Of a DNA stretch of 40,866 nucleotides, positions 1 through 4,547 are shown piece by piece (position 1 is the first letter of the stretch; every line of letters starts with the position of its first letter). The notes beneath the pieces are model-generated. The model made no database searches, was not told the origin of the DNA, and saw nothing but the letters and a program-made list of their open reading frames with translations. This DNA comes from Chlorobiota bacterium (lineage in GTDB: Bacteria; Bacteroidota; Bacteroidia; Bacteroidales; F082), in the NCBI GenBank assembly GCA_030618545.1, contig JAUXDH010000005.1, positions 1 to 40,866 on the forward strand, in the 5' to 3' direction. Made by a program: the position numbers and the translations under genes.

Positions 1-128
1 ATAAGCCGGGAAATTTATACTCAGAGACTGTTTGGAATTAATCCTTCAGCTTTCTTATGTGTCTTTTTAGCCACCTCATCGTTATCCGTACGGATGTCTC
101 GATCTGACAAAAAATACATTATAATAAT

Positions 129-141
129 CCCGAAAGCTTTC
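129..141. repeat. Partial palindrome copy 1 (CCCGAAAGCTTTC)
   Basis: It has the same core as the full palindrome at 357-374, but the right-hand GGG is replaced by AGC. It is one of three copies within about 250 bases. Confidence 0.6.
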
Positions 142-222
142 AGCGATTTTTTACCCAGACAACATTATAGTGAATGAGTTGTATTTGTGGCAATTTGAGA
201 ATGTTAGCCACCAAGGCACTAT

Positions 223-235
223 CCCGAAAGCTTTC
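223..235. repeat. Partial palindrome copy 2 (CCCGAAAGCTTTC)
   Basis: It has the same 13-base core as copy 1, also preceded by AT. The right arm continues as CAGG instead of GGG. Confidence 0.6.
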
Positions 236-333
236 CAGGCTTTTATTCCAAATGATAATTTCAGTTGTACTTGTTGTTATTTCGACTGATATGATTAGTT
301 TTGCAGCCGATGATAAATTCAGCAATTCAAACC

Positions 334-400
334 GGTCCTATAGCTCAGTTGGTTAGCCCCGAAAGCTTTCGGGGGACTCATAATCAGGTGGTTCTGGTTT
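334..400 (+). pseudogene. Degenerate tRNA(CAT) copy interrupted by an 18-bp palindrome
   Basis: Bases 334-356 match the 5' end of the intact tRNA at 431 (acceptor strand and D arm, about one mismatch). Bases 375-392 match its anticodon-loop and 3' anticodon-stem sequence, including the CAT anticodon. Between them, the eight bases that form the 5' anticodon stem are replaced by CCCCGAAAGCTTTCGGGG (357-374), a perfect palindrome. The T arm and 3' acceptor strand are not recognisable. It cannot fold as a tRNA. It looks like a tandem duplicate (offset 97 bases) that later decayed. Whether the palindrome inserted into it or arose by replacement is inference. Confidence 0.8.
357..374. repeat. Perfect 18-bp palindrome CCCCGAAAGCTTTCGGGG
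   Basis: The sequence is its own reverse complement over 18 bases. Shortened versions of the same core occur at 129-141 and 223-235. Near-copies sit inside coding sequence at 1638-1651 (CCGAAAGTTTTCGG) and 21678-21689 (GAAAGCTTTCGG). This suggests a family of short dispersed palindromes, though only five examples are visible here. Confidence 0.7.
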
Positions 401-430
401 TATGTAAGGCAAAAAGTGAAAAGTAAAATA

Positions 431-504
431 GGGCCTATAGCTCAGTTGGTTAGAGCACCTGACTCATAATCAGGTGGTCCCAGGTTCAAGTCCTGGTGGG
501 CCCA
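431..504 (+). tRNA. tRNA with CAT anticodon, probably tRNA-Ile2 (lysidine type)
   Basis: This is a full 74-base cloverleaf. The acceptor stem pairs 431-437 with 497-503, with one G-U pair, and A504 is the discriminator. The D arm carries AGCTCAGTTGGTTAGAGC. The anticodon arm has loop CTCATAA and therefore anticodon CAT. The T arm is CAGGTTCAAGTCCTG. CCA is not encoded. A CAT anticodon fits initiator Met, elongator Met or Ile2. The G-C pair at the first acceptor position argues against initiator tRNA. The C4-G69 and C5-G68 pairs are the known TilS (tRNA-Ile lysidine synthetase) determinants in E. coli tRNA-Ile2, so I favour Ile2. Elongator Met remains possible. Confidence 0.92.
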
Positions 505-507
505 CGA

Positions 508-537
508 AAGCCACTCCTTAACGGGGTGGTTTTCTGC
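508..537 (+). terminator. Rho-independent terminator of the tRNA gene
   Basis: A 10-bp stem pairs 508-517 with 523-532 (three G-T pairs included) around a five-base loop. The 3' arm ends in TTTT and begins four bases after the tRNA. The T tract is short, which lowers confidence slightly. Confidence 0.6.
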
Positions 538-766
538 ATTTTGTAATCTTGTAGTTACTTGTTTGGCAAGTAAATTCACTACTACATTCAACACATCAAC
601 CCATCTCATCCCGACAAGAAAAATCTGAATCTCGAAATGGATTATAGCTGATTTCAATTTGCAGAATGCTAACTGAAGATCCCTTGTTTTTTATGGTCCA
701 GTGAAATGGCATACTCGATAAATATTACTACCCAATCATATTTATCACCAACCAAAGCATTTTTAG

Positions 767-774
767 TATATTTG
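767..774 (+). promoter_or_regulatory. Bacteroidota-type -7 box TATATTTG
   Basis: It is an exact match to TAnnTTTG, 26 bases before the ATG at 801, predicting a very short leader. No clear -33 TTTG lies at the usual spacing. Confidence 0.55.
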
Positions 775-800
775 GCCTAAAGAAACCAGCAACTATCTTT

Positions 801-2591
801 ATGAAGCTACACAGGCCATTGATCGGGCTACTCATCATCTTCGTTTTTATTGCAATCCAGCCGAAAGCTGAGGTTTTGCCAGATAGTTTGAAAGAAGCAT
901 TGCCTGTTGTTGAAGATGGATTTCATCGCATCGATCTTTATCTTCACATCAGCAAGTCATTCAAAACGACAAATATTGATTCTGCTATCTTCTATGCGGA
1001 AGCCGCGAAAAGAACCGCGTTGGAAGAAGGAGATGATAAAGGCATTGCGGAGTCACTATTTATTCTCGGAAAGATGAAACTTCGAGGCGACAGTTCACAT
1101 GCGGCCCGCGATGATTTTTATCTAGCGTTAAAATACACGGACAAATGTGATTGTGACAGCCTGAAAGCAGCTATTTATATGTTTCTGGGTAAGTTATATA
1201 TTTTTCATGATAATTATAAAGAGGCCGTTATTAACTTTTTGAAAAGCCTGGAAATAGCTGAAGAAATTGAAAATAATTTGATTTTAGGTGATTTGCTGGA
1301 TGATATCGGTATGGTTATGGCTTTTCTCCAGGATTATGATGAGGCGATGGAATATTTTGAATGGGCCATGGAAATAGATAAAGTAACAGATGATAAACGG
1401 AATCATGCCACAACGTTGAGAAATATAGGCACAATTTATCAGGAAAAAAAACAATTCCTCCAGGCAAAACAGCATTTTAAGGAGGCCTTGAATATTTATA
1501 CAGCGCTTAATTATTTTCCGGGTATGTCAACTTCTAATATCGGAATTGGTAATACCGAATTCGGCATGGGAAATTATAGTACAGCCCTTGAATATTATAA
1601 GAAAGCTTTACAAATTGCCAGGCAGATAGATATCAGTCCGAAAGTTTTCGGTCCCTTTGTTATAGCCCTGTGTTATAACAGGCTGGGTGAGACATACCTT
1701 AATTTGGGTAAGTATAATGAAGCTATTGATGCTCTGCGTATTTCATCTGATCTAAGTGAGGAGTACGATATGCCCGGAAGAAAAGCAGATGCTTCCTATT
1801 TCTTCAGCAATGTTTACGAACGAATGGGAAATATTATCTTGTCTTTCGAATATTATAAAATCTACAACCAGTTGTCCGATAGCATAATAAATGCTCGTAA
1901 TGTTGGTATCATTACTAAACTACAGATGGAATACCAGTATCTGAAAAGACACAAGGAAAAAGAAATATTGCAAATGCGTAAAGATGCACTGCAGAAAAGA
2001 AGAGAGTTAACGTATAAATACCTGATAAGTATTGCAGTAGTATTACTTTTCCTGGTCATGATCATATTTATACTTTACCGGAAGAACCAGGCCAATAAGG
2101 CAAAGCAACAGGAATTAAGACAGGAAAACCTTGAACTGGAAAAGAAAACTCTGGAAAAAGAGCTGGCTTTCAAAAACAAGGAACTAACCACCAGTGTGAT
2201 GTACCAGCTCAAGAAGAACAATTTTATCTGGAAAGTTTCTGAAAAACTGAAAAGCATTGCCCTCAACCTGACACCTGAAAACAGGAAGAGCATAAAGTCT
2301 ATTGTTAAAGAGATGGAAGCCAACATGAGTAAAGAATCATGGGAGGAGTTTGAATTCCGATTCAATGAGGTACACAATGATTTTTATGACAACCTGCTCA
2401 AAGACTTTCCTGACCTTACGCCAAATGAGCTTAAACTCAGTGCATTCCTGAAGCTCAACATGACAACAAAAGATATTGCCACAATCACTTACCAGTCCAC
2501 CCATAGTATCACTGTTGCACGCTATCGCTTACGCAATAAGCTCAAACTGGAACGGGATGATAACCTGGTAAGCTTCCTCTCAAAGTTTTAA
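801..2591 (+). CDS. Membrane-anchored TPR protein with LuxR-like C-terminal HTH
   Basis: This is a 596-residue protein. It begins with a signal-type hydrophobic segment (residues 7-24). Tetratricopeptide repeats follow (about 95-375), recognisable from spaced A-x-x-Y/F-x-x-A-L patterns such as YDEAMEYFEWAMEI and YSTALEYYKKALQIA. A single membrane helix lies at about 408-429, then a charged coiled coil (430-475). The final 60 residues contain LTPNELKLSAFLKLNMTTKDIA and a following helix typical of LuxR/GerE-type HTH in Bacteroidota TPR regulators. The layout implies a periplasmic TPR sensor joined through the membrane to a cytoplasmic DNA-binding tail. The target is unknown. It has its own promoter and no operon partner. 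A near-palindrome CCGAAAGTTTTCGG (1638-1651) lies inside the coding sequence. The architecture is clear, and the role as transcription factor is inferred from the family. Confidence 0.85.
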   Translation: MKLHRPLIGLLIIFVFIAIQPKAEVLPDSLKEALPVVEDGFHRIDLYLHISKSFKTTNIDSAIFYAEAAKRTALEEGDDKGIAESLFILGKMKLRGDSSHAARDDFYLALKYTDKCDCDSLKAAIYMFLGKLYIFHDNYKEAVINFLKSLEIAEEIENNLILGDLLDDIGMVMAFLQDYDEAMEYFEWAMEIDKVTDDKRNHATTLRNIGTIYQEKKQFLQAKQHFKEALNIYTALNYFPGMSTSNIGIGNTEFGMGNYSTALEYYKKALQIARQIDISPKVFGPFVIALCYNRLGETYLNLGKYNEAIDALRISSDLSEEYDMPGRKADASYFFSNVYERMGNIILSFEYYKIYNQLSDSIINARNVGIITKLQMEYQYLKRHKEKEILQMRKDALQKRRELTYKYLISIAVVLLFLVMIIFILYRKNQANKAKQQELRQENLELEKKTLEKELAFKNKELTTSVMYQLKKNNFIWKVSEKLKSIALNLTPENRKSIKSIVKEMEANMSKESWEEFEFRFNEVHNDFYDNLLKDFPDLTPNELKLSAFLKLNMTTKDIATITYQSTHSITVARYRLRNKLKLERDDNLVSFLSKF

Positions 2592-3551: not shown

Positions 3552-4547
3552 ATGAAGTCCACCCCCATAATTTATCTTGCCCCTTTTCAGGGAATTACAG
3601 GCTACGTTTACAGAGAGGTTTTTGCAAATCACTTTCCGACAGTAAATAAATTCTTTACTCCCTTCTTTACCAATGTTTACAAGCACAAAAGCTTTGAAAA
3701 AAAAGGTAAAGAAATTGAAAAAACCCATCATAGTTCTTGTCCTGTTACACCACAAATCCTGAGTAACGATGCTGAAGAGATCATCAGGTTTGGTAACTTT
3801 TGTGCTGGAAGGGGTTTTGATGAGATCAACTGGAACCTTGGATGTCCATTCCCCAGAGTGGCCTCTAAGAAAAGGGGATCAGGACTGCTTCCTTACCCTG
3901 ACCTGGTGGATACAATCCTCAGTTTAGCAATACCTAAAATTCCGATCAAACTTTCAATTAAATGCCGGCTGGGCTACCATTCTCCTGCTGAAATATTTAA
4001 TCTGCTTGACACCTTCGAAGCACACCAAATTTCTGAACTGATTATCCACACAAGAATTGGTAAACAGGTTTATAAAGGAGAGGTAGATCATTCTTCTTTC
4101 GAGAGAGTTATCGAAAGAACTAAATTGCCCCTTGTTTACAATGGAGATATATTCAGTGTGGAGGATTACCTGATACTATCAGAAAAGTTCAGTTCGATTA
4201 ATAAATGGATGATTGGAAGAGGACTGCTGGTCGATCCGTTTTTGGCAGGTGATATCAGGAATAAGAATACTTCACAGATAGAGAGTCGCGGACAGATTAT
4301 ACGACGCTTTGTCGAGGACCTGTATTATGCCTACCGAAAAAGCAGCAATGACCGATTGCACTCTATAAATATTATGAAAGAACTGTGGGAGTACCTTTCT
4401 TTCTCGTTTAACTTTTCCGGCCGTGTTTTTTCGCTGATAAAAAAGACGAAGAGTTTTGACGATTACGAGGATGCAGTTGCAAGGGTTTTCGATGAATATG
4501 AATGGTTGGGCTCACAATCAAAACAGTTTAATTCAAGTTCAATGTAA
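3552..4547 (+). CDS. dus: tRNA-dihydrouridine synthase family protein
   Basis: This is an FMN-dependent enzyme that reduces uridine to dihydrouridine in the D loop of tRNA. The 331 residues show the Dus TIM barrel. The N-terminal strand LAPFQGITGYVYREVF is the FMN-binding start. EINWNLGCPFPRV carries the catalytic Cys98 in the family's N-x-G-C-P context. IIHTRIGKQVYKGEVDH supplies the phosphate and RNA-facing His/Arg cluster, and LVYNGDIFSVEDY and MIGRGLLVDPFL form the C-terminal FMN phosphate site. The length is usual for the family. It is a single gene starting 14 bases after a terminator T tract. The TATTTTTA at 3538-3545 is one base from a -7 box. Which D-loop position it modifies cannot be told. 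Confidence 0.93.
   Translation: MKSTPIIYLAPFQGITGYVYREVFANHFPTVNKFFTPFFTNVYKHKSFEKKGKEIEKTHHSSCPVTPQILSNDAEEIIRFGNFCAGRGFDEINWNLGCPFPRVASKKRGSGLLPYPDLVDTILSLAIPKIPIKLSIKCRLGYHSPAEIFNLLDTFEAHQISELIIHTRIGKQVYKGEVDHSSFERVIERTKLPLVYNGDIFSVEDYLILSEKFSSINKWMIGRGLLVDPFLAGDIRNKNTSQIESRGQIIRRFVEDLYYAYRKSSNDRLHSINIMKELWEYLSFSFNFSGRVFSLIKKTKSFDDYEDAVARVFDEYEWLGSQSKQFNSSSM

What the first reader, a model, noticed from the sequence alone, without database searches (positions are those of the whole stretch)
334..504. tRNA(CAT) duplicate broken by a perfect 18-bp palindrome
A tandem copy of the tRNA at 431 retains its 5' half and anticodon loop. Its 5' anticodon stem (eight bases) is replaced by CCCCGAAAGCTTTCGGGG, and its T arm has decayed. 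Exact replacement of one strand of a stem suggests either insertion of a short mobile palindrome or template-switch repair at a stem-loop. The anticodon arm was the breakpoint.
Basis: partly seen in the sequence, partly recalled or inferred. Interest (0 to 1): 0.55.

Follow-up and report, generated by a model that had tools for sequence, protein, structure and literature searches.

The report
Relic of a tRNA-parasitic nuclease cassette
A broken copy of an essential tRNA gene, interrupted by an 18-letter hairpin, looks like the leftover of a small selfish nuclease gene that lodges beside tRNA genes in Bacteroidia and usually leaves a hairpin-stamped tRNA remnant behind.

Summary
Window 334-405 is a degenerate copy of the intact tRNA(CAT) at 431-505, with tRNA bases 24-30 (seven, not eight) replaced by the perfect 18-bp palindrome at 357-374.

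It is not a one-off. In relatives, hairpin-broken tRNA copies flank a short GIY-YIG nuclease gene beside an intact tRNA. Of the 80 best-matching nuclease genes in named genomes, 62 have a predicted tRNA within 500 bp on the same strand. Of 41 usable loci, 33 carry a hairpin of 7 bp or more in the tRNA remnant right after the gene, against 1 of 36 control stretches. Hairpins differ in sequence and position and occur with several tRNA types. The nuclease tree follows tRNA type (11 changes; minimum 23 in 200 shuffles).

The same 18-mer is dispersed in Bacteroidia, also inside RNase P RNA and tmRNA and in terminator loops.

Best reading: the window holds a nuclease-less relic of a free-standing, homing-type GIY-YIG cassette. 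Homing itself, the loss of the nuclease and the hairpin's role are inferred, not shown.

The parts
334..356 (+). 5' part of the broken tRNA copy (tRNA bases 1-23)
   Evidence: 22 of 23 identical to 431-453
357..374 (.). 18-bp perfect palindrome / hairpin replacing tRNA bases 24-30
   Evidence: in G029 and G003 the same place holds CCCCGATAGCTATCGGGG, in G019 and G032 a longer insert that begins the same way
375..405 (+). remaining part of the broken copy (tRNA bases 31-61, decayed T arm)
   Evidence: 25 of 31 identical
431..505 (+). intact tRNA(CAT); ARAGORN calls Met, probably Ile2 (identity recalled, not tested)
271..333 (+). putative promoter and leader before the broken copy; TAGTTTTG at 296-303 is the only TAnnTTTG in window 1-520, so none precedes the intact copy alone
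   Evidence: pattern scan; that TAnnTTTG is a Bacteroidetes promoter motif is recalled; similar leaders precede single tRNA genes in G005 and G016 (by eye)
511..535 (+). terminator of the intact tRNA, resembling the one at the single tRNA loci of G002 and G013 and the one after the downstream remnant in G029
   Evidence: by eye
129..144 (.). half-decayed copy of the same palindrome (2 mismatches)
223..238 (.). half-decayed copy of the same palindrome (2 mismatches)

Best explanation
Shown: in Bacteroidia a small GIY-YIG nuclease gene is repeatedly found beside an intact tRNA gene, usually followed (and sometimes preceded) by a partial copy of that tRNA in which a short hairpin replaces a few bases. 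The window has the intact tRNA and a hairpin-broken 5' copy like those of nuclease-bearing relatives, but no nuclease gene. Inferred: the nuclease is a free-standing homing-type endonuclease that spreads between tRNA loci of one isotype. Its insertion duplicates part of the tRNA so that one working copy always remains, and the hairpin disables the spare copy as a tRNA, as a nuclease target, and as a recombination partner that would delete the cassette. The window locus is a relic: the copy beside the original promoter is the broken one, the downstream copy does the work, and the nuclease gene was lost, perhaps by recombination between tRNA 3' ends.
For: Window and G029 align at 86% over 177 bp, from the broken copy through the intact tRNA; G029 carries the nuclease there. 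Of 29 tRNA(CAT) loci examined without regard to hairpins, 6 have a 5' copy and all 6 copies hold a hairpin, 5 after tRNA base 23 and 1 (G028) in the anticodon loop. The 5 other than the window all have the nuclease at the locus; of 21 same-family loci without a 5' copy, 3 do (G020, G030, G033). The ORF is PF01541, E 5.5e-13; Y5, Y16, G18, R27, H31 and E66 are invariant in 12 proteins. Of 41 loci, 33 have a hairpin >=7 bp in the remnant after the ORF, control 1 of 36, shuffles 2.2%; all 28 with an identifiable tRNA 3' end have >=6 bp. Of 75 insertion events, 67 have stems >=7 bp, shuffles 1.7%. The nuclease tree follows tRNA type: 11 changes over 61 rows, shuffles mean 29.2, minimum 23. Single tRNA loci exist in the same genera: G001, G002, G005 beside G003 and the window; G016 beside G029. 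Tandem arrays of units occur, ten at one locus.
Against: No nuclease in the window; its loss is inferred, and the contig ends 333 bp upstream of the broken copy. No cleavage or transfer was tested. The intact tRNA is identical, 75 of 75, in carriers and non-carriers of one genus (L036 against L030, L033, L039), so a nuclease cutting the tRNA alone would also cut its own locus; the target must include flanks, or donor cutting must be weak. 6 of 41 loci show no hairpin, and the 80 loci are not all independent (for example L104/L105, L130/L131). The hairpin also occurs at many sites without a nuclease in sight, and 8 of 56 genomes with the 16-mer have no detected nuclease of this kind. 18 of 80 nuclease genes have no predicted tRNA within 500 bp on the same strand; I did not sort how many of these are cut by contig ends.
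Confidence: 0.67

Rival explanations
1. The hairpin is an independent mobile repeat (like REP, Rickettsia palindromic elements or mitochondrial GC clusters) that lands in hairpin loops; the broken tRNA is just a neutral landing site and the nuclease link is incidental.
For: The 18-mer is dispersed, up to 40 copies per genome, in 29 of 395 sampled genomes of the phylum, all 29 in the window's class. Flanks of 87 non-tRNA sites pair with each other (mean duplex energy -5.48 against -4.06 for swapped flanks, 0 of 200 shuffles). In 4 of 40 palindrome loci scanned it lies inside an Rfam RNA: RNase P RNA twice, tmRNA, Flavo-1. The RNase P site differs between congeners.
Against: A hairpin is present in most remnants beside the nuclease (33 of 41; 28 of 28 with a recognisable 3' end), and other hairpin sequences fill the same role with other tRNAs; chance landing would leave many empty remnants.
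Confidence: 0.2
2. The hairpin-bearing 5' copy is a functional leader RNA of the tRNA transcript (processing, stability or decoy), kept by selection.
For: Five of six 5' copies in 29 unselected tRNA(CAT) loci have the hairpin after tRNA base 23; the copy lies between the promoter and the intact tRNA.
Against: No such copy in congeners G001, G002, G005 or in G016; spacer not conserved (by eye); the window copy is decaying.
Confidence: 0.07
3. Template-switch or fold-back repair at the anticodon stem-loop made the palindrome in place.
For: It replaces one strand of a stem exactly.
Against: The same 18-mer, or one differing by an A/T swap in each arm, sits in other arms, other tRNAs and other RNAs in many genomes; it is not a copy of local sequence.
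Confidence: 0.02
4. The copies are attachment-site duplications left by an integrase-borne island in the tRNA gene.
For: tRNA genes are common att sites (recalled).
Against: In the loci I read, units between tRNA copies are about 400 bp and hold one short GIY-YIG ORF, too little for an integrase (by eye; no integrase search was run); 5' halves are kept as well as 3' halves.
Confidence: 0.03

Closest known systems
SegB of T-even phages (free-standing GIY-YIG homing endonuclease in the tRNA cluster)
   Same: GIY-YIG gene among tRNA genes; SegB cuts inside tRNA genes and drives segmental amplification by homologous recombination (passages of PMC13096335; T4 gene order); the bacterial cassettes also form tandem arrays.
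   Different: Chromosomal in Bacteroidia; one protein found no match in phage or plasmid records and alignment A2 none in viral contigs; about 80-100 aa instead of 221; hhalign of A1 with T4 SegB aligns 21 columns at 1.9% probability; hairpin-broken tRNA remnants.
UPF0213 proteins and Slx1 (structure-specific GIY-YIG nucleases)
   Same: Best solved relatives of the cassette protein by profile: 1zg2 4.5e-9, 1ywl 1.5e-8, Slx1 7cq2 2.7e-5.
   Different: Not tRNA-linked mobile genes as far as recalled; structure-specific cutting by the cassette protein is untested.
Group I intron endonucleases (TIGR01453)
   Same: 4 of 12 cassette proteins match this NCBIfam model, best E 2.5e-4, in line with a homing-type nuclease.
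   Different: No intron was seen by eye in the cassette units read; Rfam was run on few cassette loci (window; L201).
REP/RAYT palindromes
   Same: Short dispersed palindromes of 16-20 bp.
   Different: 1 of 12 RAYT loci read has a palindrome of this type; several have other palindromes. The GTAG/CGTC tag described for REPs (abstract start of PMC3733652; title) was not seen by eye.
Rickettsia palindromic elements; fungal, algal and sponge mitochondrial GC clusters / double-hairpin elements / RHE
   Same: Small mobile hairpins or palindromes (listing and abstract starts; rest recalled).
   Different: Different sequence and lineage; here found with a nuclease cassette and tRNA remnants.

Membership tests
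Free-standing homing endonuclease (SegB-like) | GIY-YIG nuclease domain with catalytic residues | tested here: met
   PF01541 5.5e-13; Y5, Y16, G18, R27, H31, E66 invariant in 12 (which are catalytic is recalled). Relatives only; no such gene in the window
Free-standing homing endonuclease (SegB-like) | Gene adjacent to its target gene, not in an intron or intein | tested here: met
   Adjacency: 62 of 80 genes with a predicted tRNA within 500 bp on the same strand, 47 of 80 with it <300 bp upstream. Absence of an intron rests on reading loci by eye; that the tRNA is the cleavage target is inferred
Free-standing homing endonuclease (SegB-like) | Presence/absence polymorphism at the same site | tested here: met
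   G016 single tRNA, G029 with cassette (same genus); G005 single, G003 with cassette (same genus), upstream sequence alike by eye. G001 and G002 are also single but their upstream sequence differs
Free-standing homing endonuclease (SegB-like) | Cleaves cassette-free alleles and is copied into them | not testable with these tools
   needs biochemistry and crosses
Free-standing homing endonuclease (SegB-like) | Sequence homology to SegB beyond the GIY-YIG motif | tested here: not met
   hhalign: 21 columns, probability 1.9%
REP/RAYT (REPtron) | Palindromes flank the RAYT (Y1 transposase) gene | tested here: not met
   1 of 12 RAYT loci has a palindrome of this type
Mobile hairpin of RPE/GC-cluster type | Same short palindrome dispersed at unrelated sites with empty sites in relatives | tested here: met
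   RNase P RNA site without hairpin in G003, with the 18-mer in G004 and an extended form in G005
Mobile hairpin of RPE/GC-cluster type | Active transposition | not testable with these tools
   no population data
Integrase att-site duplication | Integrase gene and element bounded by tRNA 3' fragments | tested here: inconclusive
   units read are ~400 bp with one short GIY-YIG ORF (by eye); no search for integrases was run

The most novel reading that the evidence does not exclude
A natural cleave-and-replace element: the cassette's nuclease breaks the resident copy of an essential single-copy tRNA, the break is healed with a hairpin (perhaps made or positioned by the Slx1/UPF0213-like nuclease itself, which would favour loops), and the cassette supplies the only working tRNA. 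The host then cannot lose that copy, which stays even after the nuclease decays, as in this window.
Probability: 0.15. Interest if true: 0.9.

Novelty: new variant of a known kind. Interest (0 to 1): 0.66.

Why it matters
It would give bacteria a chromosomal class of tRNA-directed selfish nuclease cassettes with a recognisable scar, found in many Bacteroidia. It also offers a tractable case of short hairpins that sit in loops of structured RNAs. It would explain a class of tRNA pseudogenes and some local assembly breaks, and make directly testable whether homing nucleases can capture essential tRNA genes.

Tried and rejected
RAYT as mobiliser of the palindrome: 12 RAYT loci read, 1 with a palindrome of this type; not supported. 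Nuclease gene hidden in the window: tblastn of 80 cassette proteins and an HMM over all frames gave only chance-level hits (best E 0.009 whole window, 0.002 in window 1-1000 taken alone; HMM E 0.4). Phage or plasmid carriage: one protein gave no match in phages or plasmids, alignment A2 none in viral contigs. Loop preference within tRNA: lost bases unpaired 0.64 against 0.54 expected, too weak to lean on; flank pairing in the 55 tRNA-flanked sites also not significant (z -1.0). Literature: nine searches of the open-licence PMC library, of which I saw listings and abstract starts, showed no description of tRNA-linked GIY-YIG cassettes with hairpin-broken tRNA remnants; the two 16-mers and the 14-mer searched are in no held paper. 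Only passages of PMC13096335 were read.

Confidence of the best explanation lowered from 0.68 to 0.67; the att-site row changed from 'not met' to 'inconclusive'.

Full report
What is in the window. One tRNA is predicted, at 431-505, anticodon CAT. Just upstream, 334-405 is a degenerate copy: 22 of 23 bases of tRNA 1-23, then an 18-bp perfect palindrome in place of tRNA 24-30, then 25 of 31 bases of tRNA 31-61. In 100 shuffled windows the best matches were 17 of 23 and 22 of 31. The predicted fold of the copy is not a cloverleaf; the palindrome folds into a 7-bp hairpin, -10.5 kcal/mol. Two half-decayed copies of the palindrome lie at 129-144 and 223-238. The only TAnnTTTG (promoter motif, recalled) in window 1-520 is at 296, before the broken copy. 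The intact copy ends in a terminator resembling, by eye, that of single tRNA loci in G002 and G013. No nuclease gene of the kind described below is in the window.

Relatives. A search of 61 genomes with window 300-540 found broken copy plus intact tRNA in G029 (177 bp, 86%) and similar broken copies in G003, G019 and G032. Reading these loci showed a short ORF between or beside the copies. It is a GIY-YIG nuclease (PF01541, 5.5e-13) with Y5, Y16, G18, R27, H31 and E66 invariant among 12 proteins. In G029 the order, read by eye, is: promoter, 5' copy with hairpin, intact tRNA, terminator, nuclease, 3' copy with hairpin in the T arm, second terminator. Of 29 tRNA(CAT) loci held, examined for any 5' copy regardless of hairpins, 6 have one (window, G029, G003, G032, G019, G028). 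All six hold a hairpin, five after tRNA base 23, G028 in the anticodon loop; in G032 and G019 the insert is longer. The five other than the window have the nuclease at that locus. Among 21 loci of the same family without a 5' copy, one search puts a nuclease at the locus in G020, G030 and G033. G001, G002, G005 (window's genus) and G016 (genus of G029) have a single tRNA and no copy. In one search's list, which is cut at weak matches, no second full-length copy of this tRNA appears in G000, G003, G029 or G033.

Generality. 46 of 149 genomes of the family encode a relative of the nuclease. A scan of named genomes gave 135 relatives, of which the best 80 were kept; titles are Bacteroidota apart from one MAG labelled Rickettsiales and one labelled Chlorobiota. 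47 of 80 have a predicted tRNA less than 300 bp upstream on the same strand, and 62 of 80 within 500 bp on either side: Met(cat) 26, Asn 21, Leu 12, Arg, Val and Gly 1 each. From roughly 50 tRNA genes in 3.5 Mb I would expect well under 1% by chance (my estimate). Further reading added initiator-type Met, Thr, Val, Pro and, in the window's own genome, a Ser-like tRNA not called by ARAGORN (hairpins there by eye). In 20 loci chosen by hand from the strong hits, 17 have a predicted tRNA. A profile of the nucleases matches 100 of 149 sampled genomes of the class, but tRNA linkage was not measured for those as a whole.

The hairpin is a near-constant part. Of 47 loci with a tRNA less than 200 bp upstream, 6 were too short downstream. 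Of the 41 others, 33 have a hairpin of at least 7 bp and 35 of at least 6 bp in the tRNA remnant after the ORF; the six misses are L123, L140, L154, L155, L169 and L170. All 28 with a recognisable tRNA 3' end have at least 6 bp. Controls: 1 of 36 stretches 450 bp downstream, 2.2% of shuffled remnants. A few loci are near-duplicates (L104/L105, L130/L131). An extraction of insertions between collinear tRNA pieces gave 75 events (44 distinct inserts); 46 inserts are exactly 18 nt, 67 have stems of at least 7 bp counting G-U (shuffles 1.7%), and 58 replace 2-6 bases. They fall in the D, anticodon, variable or T region. Loop preference inside the tRNA is weak (0.64 against 0.54). Hairpin sequences differ between lineages, for example TCCCGTTCRAACGGGA with Asn in G659, TCCGTCAGCTGACGGA with an initiator-type Met in G619, TCCCGCCTAAAGGCGGGA with Val in G221.

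Tandem arrays. L201 has three nuclease units of 403 bp, each with the palindrome inside the ORF; in the first, which I translated, it shifts the frame. G659 has ten nuclease hits about 457 bp apart by an initiator-type tRNA. By its Asn tRNA it has upstream tandem broken copies of about 127 bp and downstream nuclease units of 379 bp.

Target fidelity. On a tree of 79 nucleases (96 columns, weakly resolved) tRNA type changes 11 times over 61 labelled rows; 200 shuffles gave mean 29.2, minimum 23. Psychroflexus members carry Met, Asn and Leu elements in different branches, so this is not only host kinship.

The hairpin elsewhere. The 18-mer YCCCGATAGCTATCGGGR is in 29 of 395 sampled genomes of the phylum, all 29 within the window's class (by hand count 98 of the 395 are that class), up to 40 copies, with no reversed-control match listed; for the 16-mer in 149 class genomes one genome, G567, has one reversed-control match. 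In 4 of 40 palindrome loci scanned the palindrome lies inside an Rfam RNA: RNase P RNA (L018, L019), tmRNA (L197) and Flavo-1 RNA (L190). Of 17 RNase P RNAs, my pattern read the site in 14 (not in G001, G002, G038): G003 has no hairpin there, G004 the 18-mer, G005 a longer form, and the window's genome a 16-bp palindrome of another sequence. Of 142 non-redundant sites in the loci I held, 55 are tRNA-flanked and 87 not; the sample is biased toward tRNA loci because I fetched those. Flanks of the 87 pair with each other more than swapped flanks (-5.48 against -4.06, 0 of 200); several look like terminators whose loop is now the hairpin. So the hairpin behaves as a mobile-type repeat that tends to sit in hairpin loops. 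A link to RAYT transposases is not supported.

Mechanism. Shown: anatomy, near-constant hairpin, target fidelity, presence/absence in congeners, tandem amplification. Inferred: homing by the nuclease, and disabling of the spare tRNA by the hairpin. The nearest studied case is phage SegB, which cuts in tRNA genes and drives segmental amplification (passages of PMC13096335). The cassette protein shows no significant similarity to SegB beyond the motif; its best solved relatives are UPF0213 and Slx1, and 4 of 12 members match the group I intron endonuclease model. The main difficulty is that the intact tRNA can be identical in carriers and non-carriers, so self-cutting must be avoided by flanks or weak donor cutting.

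The window itself is best read as a relic: original copy broken by the hairpin, intact copy downstream on a resident-type terminator, nuclease gone. The same genome still has nuclease genes beside an initiator-type tRNA (contigs C135 and C79, whose ends overlap) and between Ser-like tRNA copies broken by 22-nt double hairpins (C205).

Noticed in passing
window 129-144 and 223-238: Two more copies of the palindrome, each with the 3' arm decayed, within 250 bp upstream; not in anything recognisable as tRNA.
   Followed up: partly
L059 (own genome, contig C205): Ser-like tRNA copies (by eye; not called by ARAGORN) flank a GIY-YIG ORF and carry 22-nt double hairpins (two 4-bp stems with 3-nt loops) in the anticodon and T loops.
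   Followed up: partly
L058 end / L060 start (contigs C135, C79): The two contig ends overlap within one GIY-YIG gene beside an initiator-type tRNA, as if cassettes break the assembly.
   Followed up: partly
L266-L268, L273 (RNase P RNA): One variable hairpin near the 3' end of RNase P RNA is absent, is the 18-mer, or is another palindrome in members of one genus.
   Followed up: partly
L197, L190, L199, L210: The palindrome sits inside tmRNA, Flavo-1 RNA and the loops of terminator-like hairpins.
   Followed up: partly
L011, L253, L267: A second palindrome, CCGTCAGCTGACGG, also appears at unrelated places and in a broken initiator-type tRNA copy.
   Followed up: no
L076, L080, L082, L089: The C-terminus of these Asn-linked nucleases (AQLVRV, in L089 DQLVRV) seems to be encoded by the tRNA remnant, D-arm region (by eye).
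   Followed up: no
window 3552-4547: A tRNA-dihydrouridine synthase (PF01207) gene lies about 3 kb from the tRNA.
   Followed up: no
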